Shown: one piece after another, positions 2,617 to 39,742 of the stretch
How the letters are laid out: the number at the start of each line of letters is the position of its first letter
How positions within the stretch are numbered: position 1 is the stretch's first letter
Assembly (NCBI GenBank): GCA_021014945.1
Contig: MU266345.1
Span: 153,051-217,050 of the forward strand
Length of the DNA: 64,000 nucleotides
Direction of reading: 5' to 3'
DNA from: Leucogyrophana mollusca
Lineage: Eukaryota; Basidiomycota; Agaricomycetes; Boletales
The notes under the pieces: generated by a model
Seen by the model: only the letters and a program-made list of their open reading frames with translations
Told to the model about the DNA's origin: nothing
Database searches by the model: none
Program-made: the position numbers and the translations under genes

Positions 2617-4797
<2,181 letters not shown>

Positions 4798-5402
4798 TTG
4801 CTTGGCTAGGATGCGCACAGTATTGTATATAGCTGATTGTTTGCTTTGGCATGTCTATACAGTGTGATGTATTTGCTGTTATTCTTGATGCGCTGATCCG
4901 AGCAATCGCATGGTTGGAGAGCTTGAAATTTGCAGTGCCATAAATCCCCTTGACGTTGTTCAATTGTATATTTCCCTTGACATTCTCAGTTGCGGTCGAG
5001 GCTTTGTACAGGCTTTAGCTTCAGTGGGTGTTCGACGTATAGCGCGGCACAGCCTCGATGCACCTTCTACCGAACAGCGAACTTTCTGGAGCCCCACGTT
5101 GGGTCTATTTGTGAACTGGATAGACAATGAACCTGACCCCGAGTCCGCCCGTGCTTACCATGCGGGGAAAAGCAATGAAGGTACGCGCCGATCGCAAAAT
5201 CTTTCACAGCGTCTCTGCATGTTATCAGAACTCCTTACCACAGCATTTTCACAGCATTTTATGATGACTTCAGGACTCAAGAGCGAGTCAGAGTCCTTGT
5301 TACCTCTTCTAATATCATCACCAGGAAAGCATCACGCCGTCAGTGGACATATCGTTTGAGTATGTCTGCTCTGAAGGTGCCGATATTCGTTCCCTCTGAA
5401 CT
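4798..5402. other. Intergenic region with an unassigned plus-strand ORF
   Basis: An open frame at 4910-5359 on the plus strand contains a plausible stretch (FWSPTLGLFVNWIDNEPDPE) followed by a GT donor at about 5179, so it could be an upstream exon of the mini-exon gene that begins at 5403. No family is recognised and there is no clear start signal. The first 100 bp are likely the U2AF 3' untranslated region. Confidence 0.3.
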
Positions 5403-8171
5403 ATGGCAATTGGAACTCATTTTGAATCTGCCCAGGCCAACACGGGCAAACGTGCCGAAGCCAAGAACGACAGTGGACCATCCCCTCCCAAGGCGCGAGC
5501 GTCTCTGATTGTTCCACGAACCCGCGTTGACTTAGAATCCGTTCAGGCTACGAAATCGCCAAAGGCGCCGCTAGACAAGCAGTATCATGACATTGACGTA
5601 GGTCCCAATGTTCCTTTTCGAGGATCATGGCTCCCAGTCTCAGTGTTGAAACAATGTTACGTAGGCCCCGAAAGTGCCAAAGACTTTGGAGGCCAGGGAT
5701 GTTGCTACACCACGTAACTCGGAGGTTTGAGCTCTCTTTTCTAAAATTGAATCGGCACTCAATCGACTCCTCTCAGACCAAGAAGCCCACGGGGAAATCA
5801 GAGGAAAAAACTGATGCGCCTATGCCTACTCCAAAGGTGCGAGTATCTCGCGCACCAAGCAGCCGTTTCGTCATCTTATTCCGCCCTTTCACCTACACAG
5901 GCCAAGAAAGCACCCAAGATAGCGATACCTACCAGTGAAACCGGTGACGCGGATGTGTCTCCAGGGGCTCCAAAGATGAAGGTGGGTGTGCTCCTTTCTT
6001 AATTGAGTCATGGAATATGTTCTGACCCTTCACGTAGGCTGCGCAGCCAAATCAGACGAAAGATGACCATGATTCGCCCGCTTCCAAGGTGCGATCTTCG
6101 TTTATCAAGGAGTGTTCCAATTCAGTGCTGATATGCCACTCGCACCCAGTCGACGAAACCAGTCAAAGGTAAAAATGGCAAGGCGTCCACTCCAAAGGTG
6201 CGACTTTTATTTTGTTTCTGGCAGTCGTGACAATCTCACACAATTGCCTCAACATAGGTCCCGAAAGCACCATCAGTAAAGGAGACCAAGAGTGGTGGCG
6301 ACTCGTCCCCTTCAAAGGTACGTGGAACCGTTGGTTAAAAGTATCAAGGTGCCGGTCTTTACATGCTTTCCTCCAGGCTGAAAAGTTGTCAAAAGTACCC
6401 GAGGATAAAACAAATGGTGGTACCCCTCCAAAAGTACAGTCGTTTGCTGACCTCGACGAGGAGTCCTTGCTCATATCGTATCGCTTCTCCCAGGCAGAGG
6501 AACTGTCGAAGGCGGAACGAAAGAAGCCTTCCGGCCCCTCATCTTCGAAGGTATTGGTCTGCGCTCTTCTTGACAGAAGCTCGCTTCCGACGTTCTTCCA
6601 CTCAGGCTGCGAAACCATCAAAGCCACTAGATGGCGATAATCCCTCAGGAGTGTCCCTTCCAGATGTACGAGTTTCTCGAACCTTGGTATTCAGTGCTGA
6701 CATACCATTGCCTTGTGCTCACGACACACAGTTAAAGGTGTCGCCTCCATCAGAGGGCGATAACTGCGCGGTCACAATTCCTTCAAAGGTTTGTAGTCCT
6801 ATTAGTTATGGACCTTTTGTCGGAACTAATTTTGATACGGGACTCGAAGACACCACCCGAATCAGCTCCAGATAAGCTGACAGATGTAAGGGTCTTCGTT
6901 CTTTTATCAACCACCGGCGGTAGACATTTAAATATTCCACTCAGGACCAAGAATCGTCAAAGGCACTGCAGGTTTATAACGGACCCGAAATTACTCCTCA
7001 TCCAAAGGTCCGATCCATCACCATTCTCGAGATGGTGACAATTAGTGACTTGTCTTGCCCTCACATCACCACAGGCGCCGGAAACCAAAAACCACGCCGG
7101 CACCGCGCTAGTCGTTGCCATTGAAGTCCTAGATACCACCCGAAAACTAGCCCCACACTCCGCTGTACAGGCGCTTTTATCAGTTTGTCACGGGATCCTG
7201 GTTCTCGTTCAAGTACGTGAGGTCGGAGTATCTTGAATGTATCCCATTCTTATTGGACGCGATGGCAGGGCGCGATCAAGAATCAAGATGACTTTGTGGA
7301 TGTTGCACAGCAGTGTCACGACATAGGAGTGATGGTCTGGCGGAGAACCTCCAAGCTATCTGGTGGAAATATTGATCCTGACGTCGCAGAGGTTCTCCGT
7401 GCGTTCACAAGGTCGTTTTGGGTCTCCACAACTCGTTGCTCGGTTTCGCTTAACTAACATGTCTAACAGAGCCGTTGGCAATGTCAAAAATAGCATCGAT
7501 GCCGCGATAAAGGAGAACGAGGGGCGTATTTTTCCCGTTAGGATGTTTTTTGCTTCGGTAGACCACAAGAAGATAGCTGCCTGGAAACACGACCTCGAGC
7601 GCCGCCGACAGGACTTCATTGCGAGTGCCCTTGTTCGCTCTAGTTACATTGATGTTAACGATTTTAACCACCAACCATGACAGATCGAGCTCAGTTTACT
7701 CGCTCTCATGAAGAGGAACCAAATCATTACTGTTATCAAGCCGACAGCGAAGGCAGTTCAGAACAGGAAGATGATTACAAATGGGCGAGTACCTCACCTA
7801 CCGGCATGTGTGTAGCTAATTGCTAATGAATTATGCAGAAAGGAAGCCGGAAATCCTGGAAGTCCAGCGACGGCTAAGGGCAGCCCCTGTCCCGAAGGTA
7901 AAGGCAAGGGCAAAGGCAAAGATAAAGCTACGGGTATGAAGTATCCCAGTGGCAACGAGGGCAAGCCATCCCGAGTCCAGCCCTCGGACTCGAAAAAAGG
8001 ACAGCCTTCGGGGAGTAATGAAAGTGCGCACAAGGGCAAGCACCGGCCGAGTGTATGTCGCCCACCCTTTGTCTTGATATGATTGAAACTAAACATATAA
8101 TAAAGGATACACCACCCCCTCCATTGCAGGCGGCATCGACCAGCAAAGGATGGGCACGCAAGGTCAAGTAG
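5403..8171 (+). CDS. Mini-exon repeat protein with NLR/MLKL-type helical bundle
   Basis: Fourteen short exons (36-81 nt, mostly 48-63) at 5436-5492, 5547-5597, 5665-5724, 5777-5836, 5901-5981, 6038-6088, 6150-6197, 6258-6317, 6377-6433, 6494-6550, 6606-6665, 6732-6788, 6850-6885 and 6945-7007. Each is a multiple of three and encodes a Lys/Pro/Ser/Asp-rich unit usually ending SK or PK before the donor (typical donor AAG|GTGCGA). Longer exons from 7075 give a helical region: ALVVAIEVLDTTRKLAPHS, then DDFVDVAQQCHDIGVMVW, DPDVAEVLRAFTRAVGNVK and HKKIAAWKHDLERRRQDF. This pattern resembles the MLKL-like four-helix bundle at the N-terminus of many basidiomycete NLR proteins. No NACHT or NB-ARC domain follows; the protein ends in a Gly/Lys-rich tail (EGKGKGKGKDKATG) and a small last exon with the stop at 8169-8171. 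The start at 5403 (MAIGTHFESAQ) is in frame but upstream exons are possible. The exon chain is strong, the domain call moderate, the function inferred. Confidence 0.65.
5436..7007 (+). repeat. Tandem array of 14 exon-intron units, period about 115 bp
   Basis: Exon starts recur every 95-137 bp, with introns of 52-67 bp. Exon lengths are 57, 51, 60, 60, 81, 51, 48, 60, 57, 57, 60, 57, 36 and 63 nt, all divisible by three, and every intron is phase 0. Similar donors (GTGCGA or GTACG after AAG) and CAG acceptors followed by GC recur, as does the unit pattern K-x-K near the start and SPSK/TPK at the end. This fits tandem duplication of a whole exon-intron cassette followed by divergence. Confidence 0.8.
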
Positions 8172-8558: not shown

Positions 8559-10180
8559 TTGCTGTGTGTGAATGGACTTGAAGCATTTTCGCGTCAGAAT
8601 TCAGAGGGTGACGAAACAGATTCTGATGATGGCGGGAAGCACCGCGCAACTTGGTACTCAACCACACTCAACGCAAACCACCGCCGATATGGAGTCTCGG
8701 AGCGCGTCAGCGTCTCGTCCTTGGTCATTGTCTCGTGCTATTGTATCCCACAAAGCTGGTCAGATACCTGAGGAGCCATCCACGATTAGTCCTGAGGCTC
8801 AAGGTATCTCCAACGAATATGTCTCCAACCAGCTCCCCACGCATCTGCTATATGTACCATACATGAAGCTCATGAGCGCTTGAGCCGAAGCGAGGTAGCG
8901 AGGTGAAAAGACACTTTTTAGCATATCTCCGAGGGGGATCGAGCAAACATGTGACAGCATGTGACCGTGTACATCCCAGACCTGCGCTGAAACGCGACTA
9001 CATCCTGGGTTTGGGAAAACAATGATTGAATACGCCATCCTCTCTCATACATGTCTTTGACGAAGGGGAACCGACATTCAAGAACGCATCAAAGAGAAGG
9101 GGGAGGGGGAGATGGAGAAAGTTTTGGGGAGGCGTGGGATACCAGAACCTGAGGGAGTTCTGACGGTAAGAAGGGAAAGGAGTATGGGTGCGATCTCGTC
9201 TGGTCGGATACGCGTTGCATCAACAAGGCTAGCAGCGCAGAGACGGACGAGGCCATCCGATCGATGTTCAACCTTTCAGGTGGTATCGGAACGCCGATTT
9301 ATGCATCGCCTACCTAGCCAACTCGTTCACTGTCTCCGATTTCGAGAAAGGGTCATGGTTTGGGAGGGGATGGACGTTCCAGGAAATGCTGGCTCCGAAG
9401 AGAATGAGGTGCTATGGCAAGGGATGGATCCCTTCCAACGGAGACGACAACGACAAAGAGCGACGGAGTAATATCATGCACACGATATCGAGGATGACGA
9501 AGATCCCCATCAGTGGCTTGATATGCTTCGAGTCTGGAACGAAGAGAGTGACAGATACGATGTCGTGAGCGTCGAACAGACGTACAACTAGGGTCGAGGA
9601 CTTCGCGTATTCTCTCTTCGGGATATTCAATGTGAGCCTCACAATTGCGTATGGGGAAGAAGCCAGAGCTTTCTTTAGGCTGCTGAGCGCAATCATGCAG
9701 GAATCCAATGGACTCGACGTCTTCTACTGGATAGGCACACCCTCTCCGTACAACGCTGCTTTGCCGGATTCTCCTGATTGCTATCCCTTGCTCGACAACG
9801 ACCTCGTCCATCCTAACACACCAGAGTGCCGGGCCCTTGACCGCCCGGCGCATGAGCATGATGTTTCGTATCCAGTTGGTGACCAATCACGGTTTATGTC
9901 TGAATGTCCTGCTGGTGGTTGTCGGTTCGGTAGCCTCCCACTGGGGGCCTCGCTGTAGTGGGCGAAAACAGACATTTTCCCGTATGTCCATTACGTGCTG
10001 GGGATGACCGACTACAAGGACTCGGGCGTGGATGTGTTTGTGGACACCTGCATAACGCACACAGCCTTTCTGCTCAAGATAAAGGAGAAAGAAGCTGGGC
10101 GTTCTGAATCATGGCTCTCGCAGAGCGTTTTCAAGATTTGCCCCGTGAAGGTCTTGCGCGGACAACCTACCACCCTATAA
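8559..10180 (+). pseudogene. HET-domain (heterokaryon incompatibility) pseudogene
   Basis: HET proteins trigger cell death after non-self recognition in filamentous fungi. The pre-HET motif SNQLPTHLLYVPYMKLMS (about 8812-8875) is followed by IEYAILSHTCL (about 9027-9059), matching the usual HET start 'YAILSHTW'. Further HET landmarks are LVWSDTRCIN near 9195, WFGRGWTFQEMLAPKRM near 9360-9410, and VEDFAYSLFGIFNVSL with TIAYGEEARAFFRLL near 9595-9680. The reading frame is broken by a likely one-base insertion after the SHT motif, another frame change near 9280, and an in-frame TGA at 9566-9568 where relatives have Trp (TMS-stop-ASNRRTTRVEDF). More stops lie between the pre-HET motif and the HET start. 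The 3' part (9632-9958 and 9995-10180) stays open but has no recognised effector domain. Confidence 0.75.
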
Positions 10181-35938: not shown

Positions 35939-36782
35939 CAGCATGAGTTCACAGCACAGGTGGGAGGCGCCCAAGTGGGAACTCCCTATTTGTGTTCTCG
36001 TGAAAGACAACAAGTTCGTCACGCCCGTGGTGCTGCGGCAAAATCGATGTGAAGAAGGCCACCTGTGCAGGTGTCAGTCGCGATCGAGAACTTGATCGGC
36101 GAACTCCTTTGGCTTTAAACCAGTGAGTAGAGGCGGCGGGTATCTCGGGCCCCGCCAGGGTAGCCACGGAGGTAAAGGAGATGAAGGGAACCCACTGTGC
36201 CGCAGAAGATCGAAGAGCAGGTCGTGCGGGTTCCCACTGTGCATCGGGGATCCTGTAAGAGCCGGTGTTGACAATGCTTAGTGCCAGTACTGTGGACTGT
36301 GACATTCGCGTCCGACCTGTGCTAAGTGCCGTCCGAAAACGACCAAGGATCCGAGTCCCAGACGCGATCAACCGCGGGAAGATGGACAAGGACGACTTTA
36401 CGACATTTCTCCACCCCACCGATCAAGCGATCGCTACAACCACCAGGTAGGTTAAAGCAGTTAAAGCGAACGGGACCGTTAGCAAAAAAGTCCAGCCGGT
36501 CAGGATAGTGAAGCAAAAAACAGTGATATATATACATTACATGTATTCGATATCATGATGGCCCACAGAAAAGTAGTCCGTGCAAGTTGCATTATAAGTA
36601 AGAGACGAGCAACAATAATGAGAGAAGTCAAATATCCACGAGAAAGACACAATGCACAAGGCAATATAGCATACTTAGAAATACAGCAGCCTTCTTTACC
36701 GCCCCCCTTTCGCCCCTTGAAAGCGTTTCACTCTATCTCTCTCACCCGGCACCTCTGTACCGATCACTACACCACAGCCCAG
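35939..36782. other. Intergenic region, no gene recognised
   Basis: About 840 bp between the copy B upstream repeats and the Ubc2 stop. The minus ORF at 35949-36419 has no recognised domain and no splice support. Confidence 0.4.
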
Positions 36783-39742
36783 TTACAGTGTCCGCCCCAA
36801 TGGGAACGCACTCGACATTGGCGATACTTGGTCAAGTGAGACGGATACCACATTCGGGAGAGCAGGCGTCGGCGGTGCGGCACCTGGAGTGGGGACCTTG
36901 CCAATGAACCAGGACTGTTTTTAAGTTGAATAAGAGATAGCGATAGTGTGTGGCGAGGATAAGATTTGAATGTGAGTCGATAATAACACGTCACGAAAAG
37001 GAAAGACACCCACAGGAACCCAGCCGCGATCTCCGCCTTCTTCTTTGACTGCCTGTGGAAGAAGGGTGGTGCATTAGTACAAATCCCGATCCGCCCATCC
37101 GCAACCTTTTCCGAATAAATAAATAAAACCTCTCCCAAACCGGGGGTGGGGATAAAAGGGCAACAAAAAACACGTACATAACTCCAATGGTTATACCTCT
37201 TGAACACCCTTAACGCATCGTCCTTCGCCAGATCCAGCTCCTCCTCGCCCTTCTTCTTATACTCCATTAGCGCAATGCCAGGGAAGCTCGTCGAGATGAT
37301 GCTAAGCGGCAGGATCGGAGTCTTCTTCTGCGTCCCAGGTGATGCATCTGTAGAGCCTGCTTCTGCGGACGACGAGGGGCCGACGGAGGTCGAGGACGAT
37401 GCGGCGGTGGCTTCGGCGATAGCGGACGCAACGGGGACGTTGGTCTCGAGGAGACAACCGGCGGGGACCCAGCCCTGTTTGGAAGTGTCGGTGTCGACAA
37501 CTCCAGAACCTGTTGGGTCCCGCTGGACGACCCACCATCCGCGCGCTCGCGAGAGGATCACGAAGGTATCTCCGCTATTGAGGAAGAAAACATCGCCGTC
37601 GGTCAGCACAACACAAACACAAACCCTAAACACGTGCCCGGAAAAATGCAAAAGAAAACGGGACTCACACCACAACATCGAACTCGTCTTCTTGCTCTGC
37701 CATATATGGGTATATAGCCACCGCATATGACACCCCCGCCATGGGGGGCGGCATCTCCCGCTTCGTGCCTTCCCCATCGCCTGCACGCGATTTCACGCTC
37801 CCTCCAGTCCCACCATTCTCGGTTGATCCGTGGACGAGCGTACTGGTAGACCTCATGCTCCCGGTGTCTTGGACGAGTGTACTGGTAGATGCATGGGAGA
37901 GTGTGCTCGTTGACCCGTGCGCCAGTGGGTTGCTCGACGCAGATCCCTCCCTCTCGAGTGTAGGAGACATGACCTCAGGCCAGCCAGCTTGTGGCGTCGT
38001 ACCCGTCAGCGGTTGCTGCGTGTCGAGTCTCGGGGAGCTTACGTCCAACTTCGGCGGGCGGGCGTTGGGGTGGGACGACGAGTTGGGGTGTAAGTTAGCA
38101 TGCGACTGGGACGAACTGGGGTGGTGTGCGTTAGAGTGTGAGTAGGAGGCGCTGGGGTGGTGAGATTGTGTCGAGTGGGACTGGCTTGGGTGGCCTTGAG
38201 ATGCAGAAGACTGGTTCGACACAGATGCCTTTCTTAGCGCGTGCTTCTGTTGCGCGACAGCGATGGGGGAGCGTATGTCCTTGATGTGCTTGAGCATGAA
38301 GACGGGGTTTTTCTTGGCATCTTTGAGCTTTTGGAATAGAAGGAGGGGCTTTTCGTCATAGGAGAGGCAGCGTTCTATGCGGTTTCCTGGATGAGGTGGC
38401 GGGGCGTGAGTGAGAGAAAGTTAGGGTTGTTAGAAAGAGCGAGAGATTGGCGCGAGGTCAACGACAAAGCATACCAGAGACATGGTGAAGGGTAGGGAAA
38501 GAACGCTACAAAAACGTACCAGGCGATCCATAACATATGAACATGGCATAATTCTGCCAATTGTCATTATTGATCTTATATTTCTTGAGTGCTGCGGGGA
38601 GGACTTTCCACGTCGGGTCCTCGAGGCTGACTTTGAAGCTCTTGAGATTGTCGGTGGAGTCGGTCCGCGTGGGTTTCGAGGTGGATGTCGAACCTGAATT
38701 TGGAGTAGAAGAGGAGAGTGGGGCGGAGGAGGAAGTTGCAGAGTTGGGGGGGATGGAGGCGGAGGAAGGTGGGTTAGACCCAGGTGAGTCACGTGGGTGC
38801 CGCTCGGTGGGCGTGGAGGAGGGCTGGATCTGGATTTGTGGCGGGGGTTGGGCGCGTCCCGTTTGGGGCTGGATCTGGGACGGGTCGTGCTCTGCCTGTT
38901 GTGGCGAGAGGTGGGGGGATTCGGCGTCGGGCTTAGTGGGTGACTTGGCAGGGTATTGAGCCCATTTGTAGGAGTGTTGGCGGCGGAGAGGTGGTTCGTC
39001 CTGCGGAGTGGGGTATGAGTGGTGAGTATTCAAAGGGATAGTTGCATGTATAAGAAGATAAACGAGATGAAATTGCAGTGTGTATTAATATGTACAAGGA
39101 CGAATGAAAAGGAACGAGATAACGCACCGACGGCCTATTCCGTGCGGCGTTGTACTCGTCGAGAAGGAACCGGATGTGGTCATGGAGTTGTTTGTTATCT
39201 TCTTCGAGAAGATGCACGCGCTGAGCTGATAAGCCGGGTAGCCAATCAATGAGCGTGGACAGAGAGCGCCGCACCCAGACAATGCACACTGACCTTGTTC
39301 CTTCACGAGATCGAAGAGTTTCTCAACTGAGACATTCCGCTCCTGGACTTCCGCTGTGCGCCGATTCAGCCGGTGCTAGCAGTGACAGTGGCAGTGTAGT
39401 GATGCTTACACGGGGGTATATAGTGGTCGGGCTCGACGGGAATGCGATGTGCGAGCTTTGCTTGGTAGACGGCCTTGAGAATTGAGAGGCGCTGGCCTAC
39501 TGTTGCTATTCCTACGGCTTTGAGGCCCTCGGGGTCAAGAAGACAAAGAGCGTCGCCGGATATTTTGTGCTCTGCGCAGCTTGCAGCGTTAGGTAGGCAA
39601 GGGAGACGAGGGGAAGAGACCAACCTTTAATCTGGCTCTGGTACTGTGGATACCCAAGAGAGGTGAGCCACTGATGTACTTGGTCTTCGTCCCAGTCTAG
39701 TATTGTGCGCTCTTTCTCGTCTTGGGTTATCTCCATCGCCAT
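36783..39742 (-). CDS. ubc2: Ubc2/Ste50-type MAPK adaptor (SAM, RA, two SH3)
   Basis: Adaptor linking pheromone and filamentation signals to a MAP kinase cascade. The chosen start at 39742 gives MAMEITQDEKERTILDWDED; an in-frame Met at 39760 is possible. The SAM domain follows (VHQWLTSLGYPQYQSQIK, ISGDALCLLDPEGLKAVGI), then a coiled coil (RVHLLEEDNKQLHDHIRFLL). A disordered linker leads to the RA domain (FKVSLEDPTWKVLPAALKKY, NWQNYAMFICYG, LSYDEKPLLLFQKLKD). After a Ser/His-rich linker come SH3-1 (AVAIYPYMAEQEDEFDVVV, GDTFVILSRARGWWVVQRD, GWVPAGCLLE) and SH3-2 (IALMEYKKKGEEELDL, VKEEGGDRGWVP, then after an intron SWFIGKVPTPGA). The two C-terminal SH3 domains mark the basidiomycete Ubc2 form, since yeast Ste50 lacks them. 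The stop TAA is at 36783-36785. Confidence 0.9.

What the first reader, a model, noticed from the sequence alone, without database searches (positions are those of the whole stretch)
5403..8171. A 14-unit array of mini-exons, all divisible by three, fused to an NLR-style helical domain
Fourteen exons of 36-81 nt recur about every 115 bp, each followed by a phase-0 intron of 52-67 nt. The peptides are similar Lys/Pro/Ser/Asp units, and donors share AAG|GTGCGA. After the array come helices that resemble the MLKL-like N-terminal bundle of basidiomycete NLRs, but no nucleotide-binding domain follows. This suggests growth by duplicating whole exon-intron cassettes. Any exon can be skipped or gained without breaking the frame, so repeat number and splicing could both vary between strains, a feature expected for an allorecognition or immune gene beside HET genes. 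The domain assignment and role are inference.
Basis: partly seen in the sequence, partly recalled or inferred. Interest (0 to 1): 0.85.

Follow-up and report, generated by a model that had tools for sequence, protein, structure and literature searches.

The report
Fungal immune-domain gene with mini-exon array
A wood-decay fungus carries a gene in which fourteen tiny, related exons, all multiples of three bases, encode a probably flexible tail joined to a helical domain related to the fungus's own immune receptors; the structure is real and unusual, but the idea that it varies between strains or by splicing is untested.

Summary
The array is real. A splice-chain score of 232 compares with at most 11 in 50 randomised windows. 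The units are homologous: 0 of 300 codon-shuffled sets are as alike. The following helical domain is homologous to N-termini of NB-ARC/TPR receptors of the same genome (87 bits), so the NLR link holds; the MLKL name has only weak support. No nucleotide-binding domain was found. Weak or unsupported: recent growth by cassette duplication (introns no more alike than chance as a set; no tandem repeat detected), strain variation, and exon skipping (1% of coding-region splicing events in another mushroom, PMC5034255). The 'HET neighbour' is a decayed fragment. Most likely: a receptor-derived helical protein with a disordered Lys/Pro/Ser arm built from old duplicated exons. No second copy of the array was seen in the genome. 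Its role is inferred.

The parts
4910..5376 (+). Deposited 5' exons (4910-5180, 5255-5376) of BV22DRAFT_155255; start doubtful. A candidate start that looks like that of NLR paralogs is ATG 5160-5180 (MRGKAMK|GTACGC)
   Evidence: unresolved
5362..5376 (+). MSALK, last 15 nt before the array, in frame with it; another possible start
5436..5492 (+). mini-exon 1, ANTGKRAEAKNDSGPSPPK; followed by a GC-AG intron (5493-5546)
5547..5597 (+). mini-exon 2, ATKSPKAPLDKQYHDID
5665..5724 (+). mini-exon 3, APKVPKTLEARDVATPRNSE
5777..5836 (+). mini-exon 4, TKKPTGKSEEKTDAPMPTPK
5901..5981 (+). mini-exon 5, AKKAPKIAIPTSETGDADVSPGAPKMK
6038..6088 (+). mini-exon 6, AAQPNQTKDDHDSPASK
6150..6197 (+). mini-exon 7, STKPVKGKNGKASTPK
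6258..6317 (+). mini-exon 8, VPKAPSVKETKSGGDSSPSK
6377..6433 (+). mini-exon 9, AEKLSKVPEDKTNGGTPPK
6494..6550 (+). mini-exon 10, AEELSKAERKKPSGPSSSK
6606..6665 (+). mini-exon 11, AAKPSKPLDGDNPSGVSLPD
6732..6788 (+). mini-exon 12, LKVSPPSEGDNCAVTIPSK
6850..6885 (+). mini-exon 13, TPPESAPDKLTD
6945..7007 (+). mini-exon 14, DQESSKALQVYNGPEITPHPK
7075..7784 (+). exons 7075-7212, 7269-7411, 7470-7620, 7684-7784: NLR-type N-terminal helical domain (P0001 residues 398-564 match the NLR profile); the introns at 7621 and 7785 have GC donors
7839..8171 (+). exons for the Lys/Gly/Pro/Ser-rich C-terminal tail and stop; the deposited model uses the acceptor at 8105, mine the one at 8129

Best explanation
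This is one gene with an open spliced frame for a stand-alone protein related to the N-terminal helical domain of the fungus's own NB-ARC/TPR receptors (shown: homology, no NB domain found). In front of that domain it carries a Lys/Pro/Ser-rich arm of about 270 residues, encoded by 14 homologous phase-0 mini-exons (shown: exons in two models, unit homology; disorder is a low-confidence structure prediction). The array arose by repeated duplication of a phase-0 exon with its flanking intron (inferred) long ago, and the units have since diverged; as a rule all exons are probably included in the mRNA (inferred). The protein most likely works as an accessory or regulator of the receptors: the helical domain associates with the same domain on NLRs or acts as a separate effector, while the charged, flexible arm and the basic C-terminal tail serve as tether, spacer, docking or phosphorylation region whose length was set by exon number (inferred, no direct evidence).
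For: Same 14 exons in the deposited model, with three GC-AG introns in the gene; array score far above controls; unit homology z 14.0 (DNA) and 10.6 (protein) against codon shuffles, 9.6 and 6.5 with the two end codons held, 0 of 300 reached each time; domain matched by a profile of 33 NLR N-termini that excludes it, 87.4 bits; 34 relatives in L. mollusca, Hygrophoropsis and Rhizopogon, nearly all of NLR length, NB-ARC and TPR seen in P0002, P0019, P0035 and P0028; several NLR paralogs begin with a tiny phase-0 exon ending GK| and a short Ser/Lys/Pro-rich stretch before the bundle; the array has no predicted secondary structure after residue 134, block pLDDT 34-51.
Against: No RNA, expression or functional data. 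The array may be neutral. Introns show no similarity as a set, so cassette duplication is not demonstrated. Unit starts are no more like the NLR N-terminal linkers than shuffles are (p 0.49 and 0.18), so an origin from that linker is not shown. The function is guessed from homology.
Confidence: 0.5

Rival explanations
1. Diversity generator: exon number and exon skipping vary between strains or transcripts and create variants in an allorecognition or immune gene.
For: All 14 exons are symmetric, so any subset stays in frame; Tuber melanosporum NACHT-ANK genes are said to diversify through alternatively spliced codon-sized exons (passages in PMC4986451 and PMC9815663); three array introns (5493, 6434, 6666) are multiples of 3 without stops, so retention also keeps the frame.
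Against: No strain or RNA data. No tandem repeat detected; no recent duplicates; exon skipping is 1% of coding-region events in Schizophyllum commune; a disordered Lys/Pro/Ser arm is an unlikely recognition surface (inference).
Confidence: 0.15
2. Relict: an NLR that lost its NB-ARC/TPR part, with an N-terminal low-complexity extension that gathers units and introns neutrally; no selected function.
For: No relative bearing the array was found; the domain is only 21-33% identical to the 34 NLR N-termini, while P0002's is 38-91% identical to the others found with it; three GC donors in one gene; a decayed HET-like remnant lies nearby.
Against: An open frame across about 20 exons and conserved domain positions (for example L409, I413, N448, D451, F452, C459 invariant in the 20-row alignment) are hard to keep without selection.
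Confidence: 0.25
3. The repeated protein region came first, without introns, and introns were then inserted in parallel at the AAG|G sites of each repeat (introner-like gain).
For: Units are homologous but introns are not as a set; the unit ends match splice consensus.
Against: Identical phase and position in every unit, and one intron pair that shares 17 of 19 bases, fit duplication of exon plus intron better.
Confidence: 0.1

Closest known systems
N-terminal MLKL-like (BaMLKL / HeLo / Goodbye-like) domains of Basidiomycota NLRs (PMC9815663: abstract, outline and passages seen)
   Same: Homologous to N-termini of NB-ARC/TPR NLRs of the same genome; an intron at the matching place near the end of the second helix in 13 of 13 paralog loci spliced; in several paralogs a short Ser/Lys/Pro-rich stretch before it
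   Different: No NB-ARC or TPR; a 14-unit array in front; basic tail behind. That these NLR N-termini are the paper's BaMLKL class was not tested directly
Tuber melanosporum NACHT-ANK (nank) genes with codon-sized mini-exons (Iotti et al. 2012, seen only as cited in PMC4986451 and PMC9815663)
   Same: Fungal NLR-related gene with many tiny symmetric exons
   Different: There 3-nt exons tied to C-terminal recognition domains, with alternative splicing reported; here 36-81-nt exons at the N-terminus, no NB domain, no splicing data
Schistosoma micro-exon genes (PMC10526429: start of abstract and passages seen)
   Same: 10-20 short exons, mostly multiples of three, up to 81 bp
   Different: Long introns (100 to almost 5000 bp), secreted proteins, other kingdom; here array introns are 52-67 nt
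Titin PEVK exons (recalled; only a paper listing seen)
   Same: Many in-frame exons for a Pro/Lys-rich disordered spring
   Different: Muscle protein with regulated skipping; no homology claimed

Membership tests
N-terminal helical domain family of L. mollusca NB-ARC/TPR NLRs | Sequence homology to those N-termini | tested here: met
   87.4 bits with a profile of 33 N-termini that excludes P0001; tblastn E 2.9e-6 and weaker to paralogs
N-terminal helical domain family of L. mollusca NB-ARC/TPR NLRs | Helical bundle of that size | tested here: met
   Predicted helices 404-422, 426-445, 449-472, 480-508, 523-573, block pLDDT 61-79 apart from 511-520 (42); paralog model P0036 also five helices, mean pLDDT 58.5
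MLKL N-terminal domain (PF22215 / cd21037) | Reaches Pfam PF22215 gathering score (27 bits) | tested here: not met
   P0001: no Pfam match at E<=1; P0002: 18.0 bits, E 0.0022; P0037: 14.1 bits, E 0.035
MLKL N-terminal domain (PF22215 / cd21037) | Profile similarity to solved MLKL structures | tested here: inconclusive
   Profile A2: 6 of 25 rows are MLKL, E 0.21-1.3, below designed helical proteins (best E 0.00072); profile A4: 0 of 10 rows
MLKL N-terminal domain (PF22215 / cd21037) | Fold match to MLKL/RPW8/CC bundles | tested here: inconclusive
MLKL N-terminal domain (PF22215 / cd21037) | CDD cd21037 annotation | not testable with these tools
   No CDD library at hand
NLR receptor | NB-ARC or NACHT domain | tested here: not met
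   0 Pfam families at E<=1 in P0001
Schistosoma-type micro-exon gene | Many short exons divisible by three | tested here: met
   14 of 14
Schistosoma-type micro-exon gene | Long introns | tested here: not met
   Array introns 52-67 nt
Tuber nank mini-exon genes | Codon-sized exons in a NACHT-ANK gene | tested here: not met
   Exons 36-81 nt; no NACHT or ankyrin match
Tuber nank mini-exon genes | Alternative splicing of the mini-exons | not testable with these tools
   No RNA data

The most novel reading that the evidence does not exclude
A fungal immune-receptor helical domain was freed from its receptor and given an exon-built, length-adjustable disordered arm; exon number and splicing tune the arm, as with titin's PEVK exons, and thereby the threshold or partner choice of NLR-driven cell death.
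Probability: 0.1. Interest if true: 0.8.

Novelty: new variant of a known kind. Interest (0 to 1): 0.5.

Why it matters
A symmetric mini-exon array of this regularity is known to me mainly from animals (schistosome MEGs, titin; partly recalled). Here it sits in a compact fungal gene, next to an immune-receptor domain. It offers a natural case to test how exon duplication builds disordered protein, whether fungal splicing can cope with or exploit such arrays, and whether NLR N-terminal domains circulate as separate proteins in basidiomycetes.

Tried and rejected
A first chain scorer with generic splice weights was too strict and missed even the array; replaced by the model, which is trained on the array itself. 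Of 51 loci scanned on both strands (102 rows, best 40 printed), six loci that overlap the array scored 106.9-232.5; next came L046 (28.8), which lies in a continuous Pro-rich reading frame, then 16.0 and less. So no array was seen within about 1.5 kb of the paralog matches held as L012-L037 or in the 14 stretches L038-L051; the rest of the genome was not scanned this way. Origin of the units from the NLR linker: not supported. Block duplication: no lag stands out for exons, protein or introns (family-wise p 0.54, 0.71, 0.54); the cassette comparison gives lag 3 with p 0.044, not taken as proof. Weak Pfam rows for my 533-aa model and the domain piece (SLATT_5 E 0.33 and 0.052, Flu_M1_C 0.045, Tfb2_C 0.14, all below cut-off) are taken as noise. 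Foldseek of the P0001 model against PDB: no match at E<=0.001, MLKL not among the 50 rows shown; Foldseek of the P0036 model against viral structures: nothing at E<=0.001; phage records: no match. Literature: no paper on this gene or a comparable basidiomycete array was seen in the ten searches (open-licence PMC only; capped listings and abstract starts seen; passages seen in PMC9815663, PMC4986451, PMC5034255 and PMC10526429; no paper read whole).

Full report
What is there. The window is contig C19:153051-217050 of a 32.3-Mb assembly. A protein search with the domain region of my spliced model returned one protein at E<=1 among 1330 candidates: BV22DRAFT_155255 of Leucogyrophana mollusca (Boletales), 667 aa, 100% identical over the query, on a contig of 217,050 bases, the length of C19. 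Mapping the deposited protein back gave the same 14 mini-exons and the same domain exons, including three GC-AG introns at 5493, 7621 and 7785. The two models differ at the 5' end (deposited exons 4910-5180 and 5255-5376, against my 5362-5376) and in the last acceptor (8105 against 8129). That the deposited model uses GC donors may mean transcript support, but this is inference; no reads were available.

The array. Exons are 36-81 nt, all phase 0, introns 52-67 nt, period about 116 bp. A chain model scores 232.5 here, at most 11.1 in 50 Markov windows and 10.2 in the rest of the + strand; with half the units as training the other half is still found. The reading frame has no stop in 266 codons, against 7 and 16 in the other two forward frames. 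The units are homologous, not just similar in composition: z 14.0 for DNA and 10.6 for protein against codon shuffles, 9.6 and 6.5 when the first and last two codons are held, 0 of 300 shuffles reaching the observed value in each case. Common features: Ala first in 8 of 14, Lys third in 8, Lys sixth in 8, [PS]K at the end in 9. Part of the end pattern is also what splice sites demand.

Age and growth. Introns as a set are no more alike than shuffles (z 1.3, p 0.14); one pair, the introns after units 6 and 11, shares 17 of 19 bases, a score reached in 43 of 2000 shuffles. Similarity shows no clear trend with distance in the array. Tandem Repeats Finder reports nothing here. I read the array as old and diverged. 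Because every unit has the same phase, duplication of exon plus intron remains the simplest origin, but it is inferred. The DNA has no second copy in the genome, and translated search finds only the array itself, 13 of 13 matches at E<=1; both searches are limited in sensitivity.

How it may work. The predicted structure, of low mean confidence (pLDDT 48.5), shows five helices from 404 to 573 and almost no structure in the array, residues 132-397. The array has 48 Lys/Arg and 36 Asp/Glu in 266 residues and 12 Ser/Thr-Pro pairs; the C-terminal tail has 19 basic to 7 acidic in 94. I read this as a receptor-derived domain with a flexible charged arm, acting with or on the NLRs that carry the same domain. 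These functional steps are inferred. In HeLo/MLKL-type proteins an N-terminal helix is expelled to form a pore (PMC9815663 background passage); an arm of about 270 residues in front of the bundle makes direct pore formation less obvious, which favours a regulatory role (inference).

Skipping and variation. All exons are symmetric, so skipping keeps the frame. But in Schizophyllum commune exon skipping is 1% of coding-region events and intron retention the main mode (PMC5034255, passages). Three array introns could be retained in frame, near what chance gives by my own rough estimate of about two (no call). There is no evidence for or against strain variation.

Surroundings. Upstream lie a Fis1-like gene and an RRM protein that I take for U2AF large subunit (that name is recalled; RRM found). 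Downstream a decayed HET-like stretch with an in-frame stop matches only the last 21 positions of PF06985 at E 0.02, below cut-off; then Vma12-like (below cut-off), zf-UBP, Atx10, Leo1, SH3, Cnd2 and DNA polymerase B matches. In the 20 reading frames tested with Pfam (10 with a match at E<=0.01 and 66 taken together not counted further) no immune gene other than this one was recognised.

Noticed in passing
window 3771-4797 (+): The gene directly upstream is an RRM protein, probably the splicing factor U2AF large subunit (name recalled); its stop lies only about 110 bp before the deposited start of the array gene, which makes that start doubtful.
   Followed up: partly
window 9290-9960 (+): Decayed HET-like gene: fragments with HET-type motifs, an in-frame stop, weak PF06985 match (E 0.02, below cut-off).
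   Followed up: partly
introns 5493-5546, 7621-7683, 7785-7838: Three GC-AG introns in one gene, all used in the deposited model; an unusually high share (general rate recalled).
   Followed up: partly
G000 contigs C151, C277, C304, C389, C390, C481, C482, C532 and others: Expanded family of receptors with this N-terminal domain plus NB-ARC plus TPR in L. mollusca, many on short contigs.
   Followed up: partly
window 36767-38420: Long open frames on both strands overlap near an SH3 match on the minus strand; GC skew is strong just after, at 38-40 kb (0.257).
   Followed up: no
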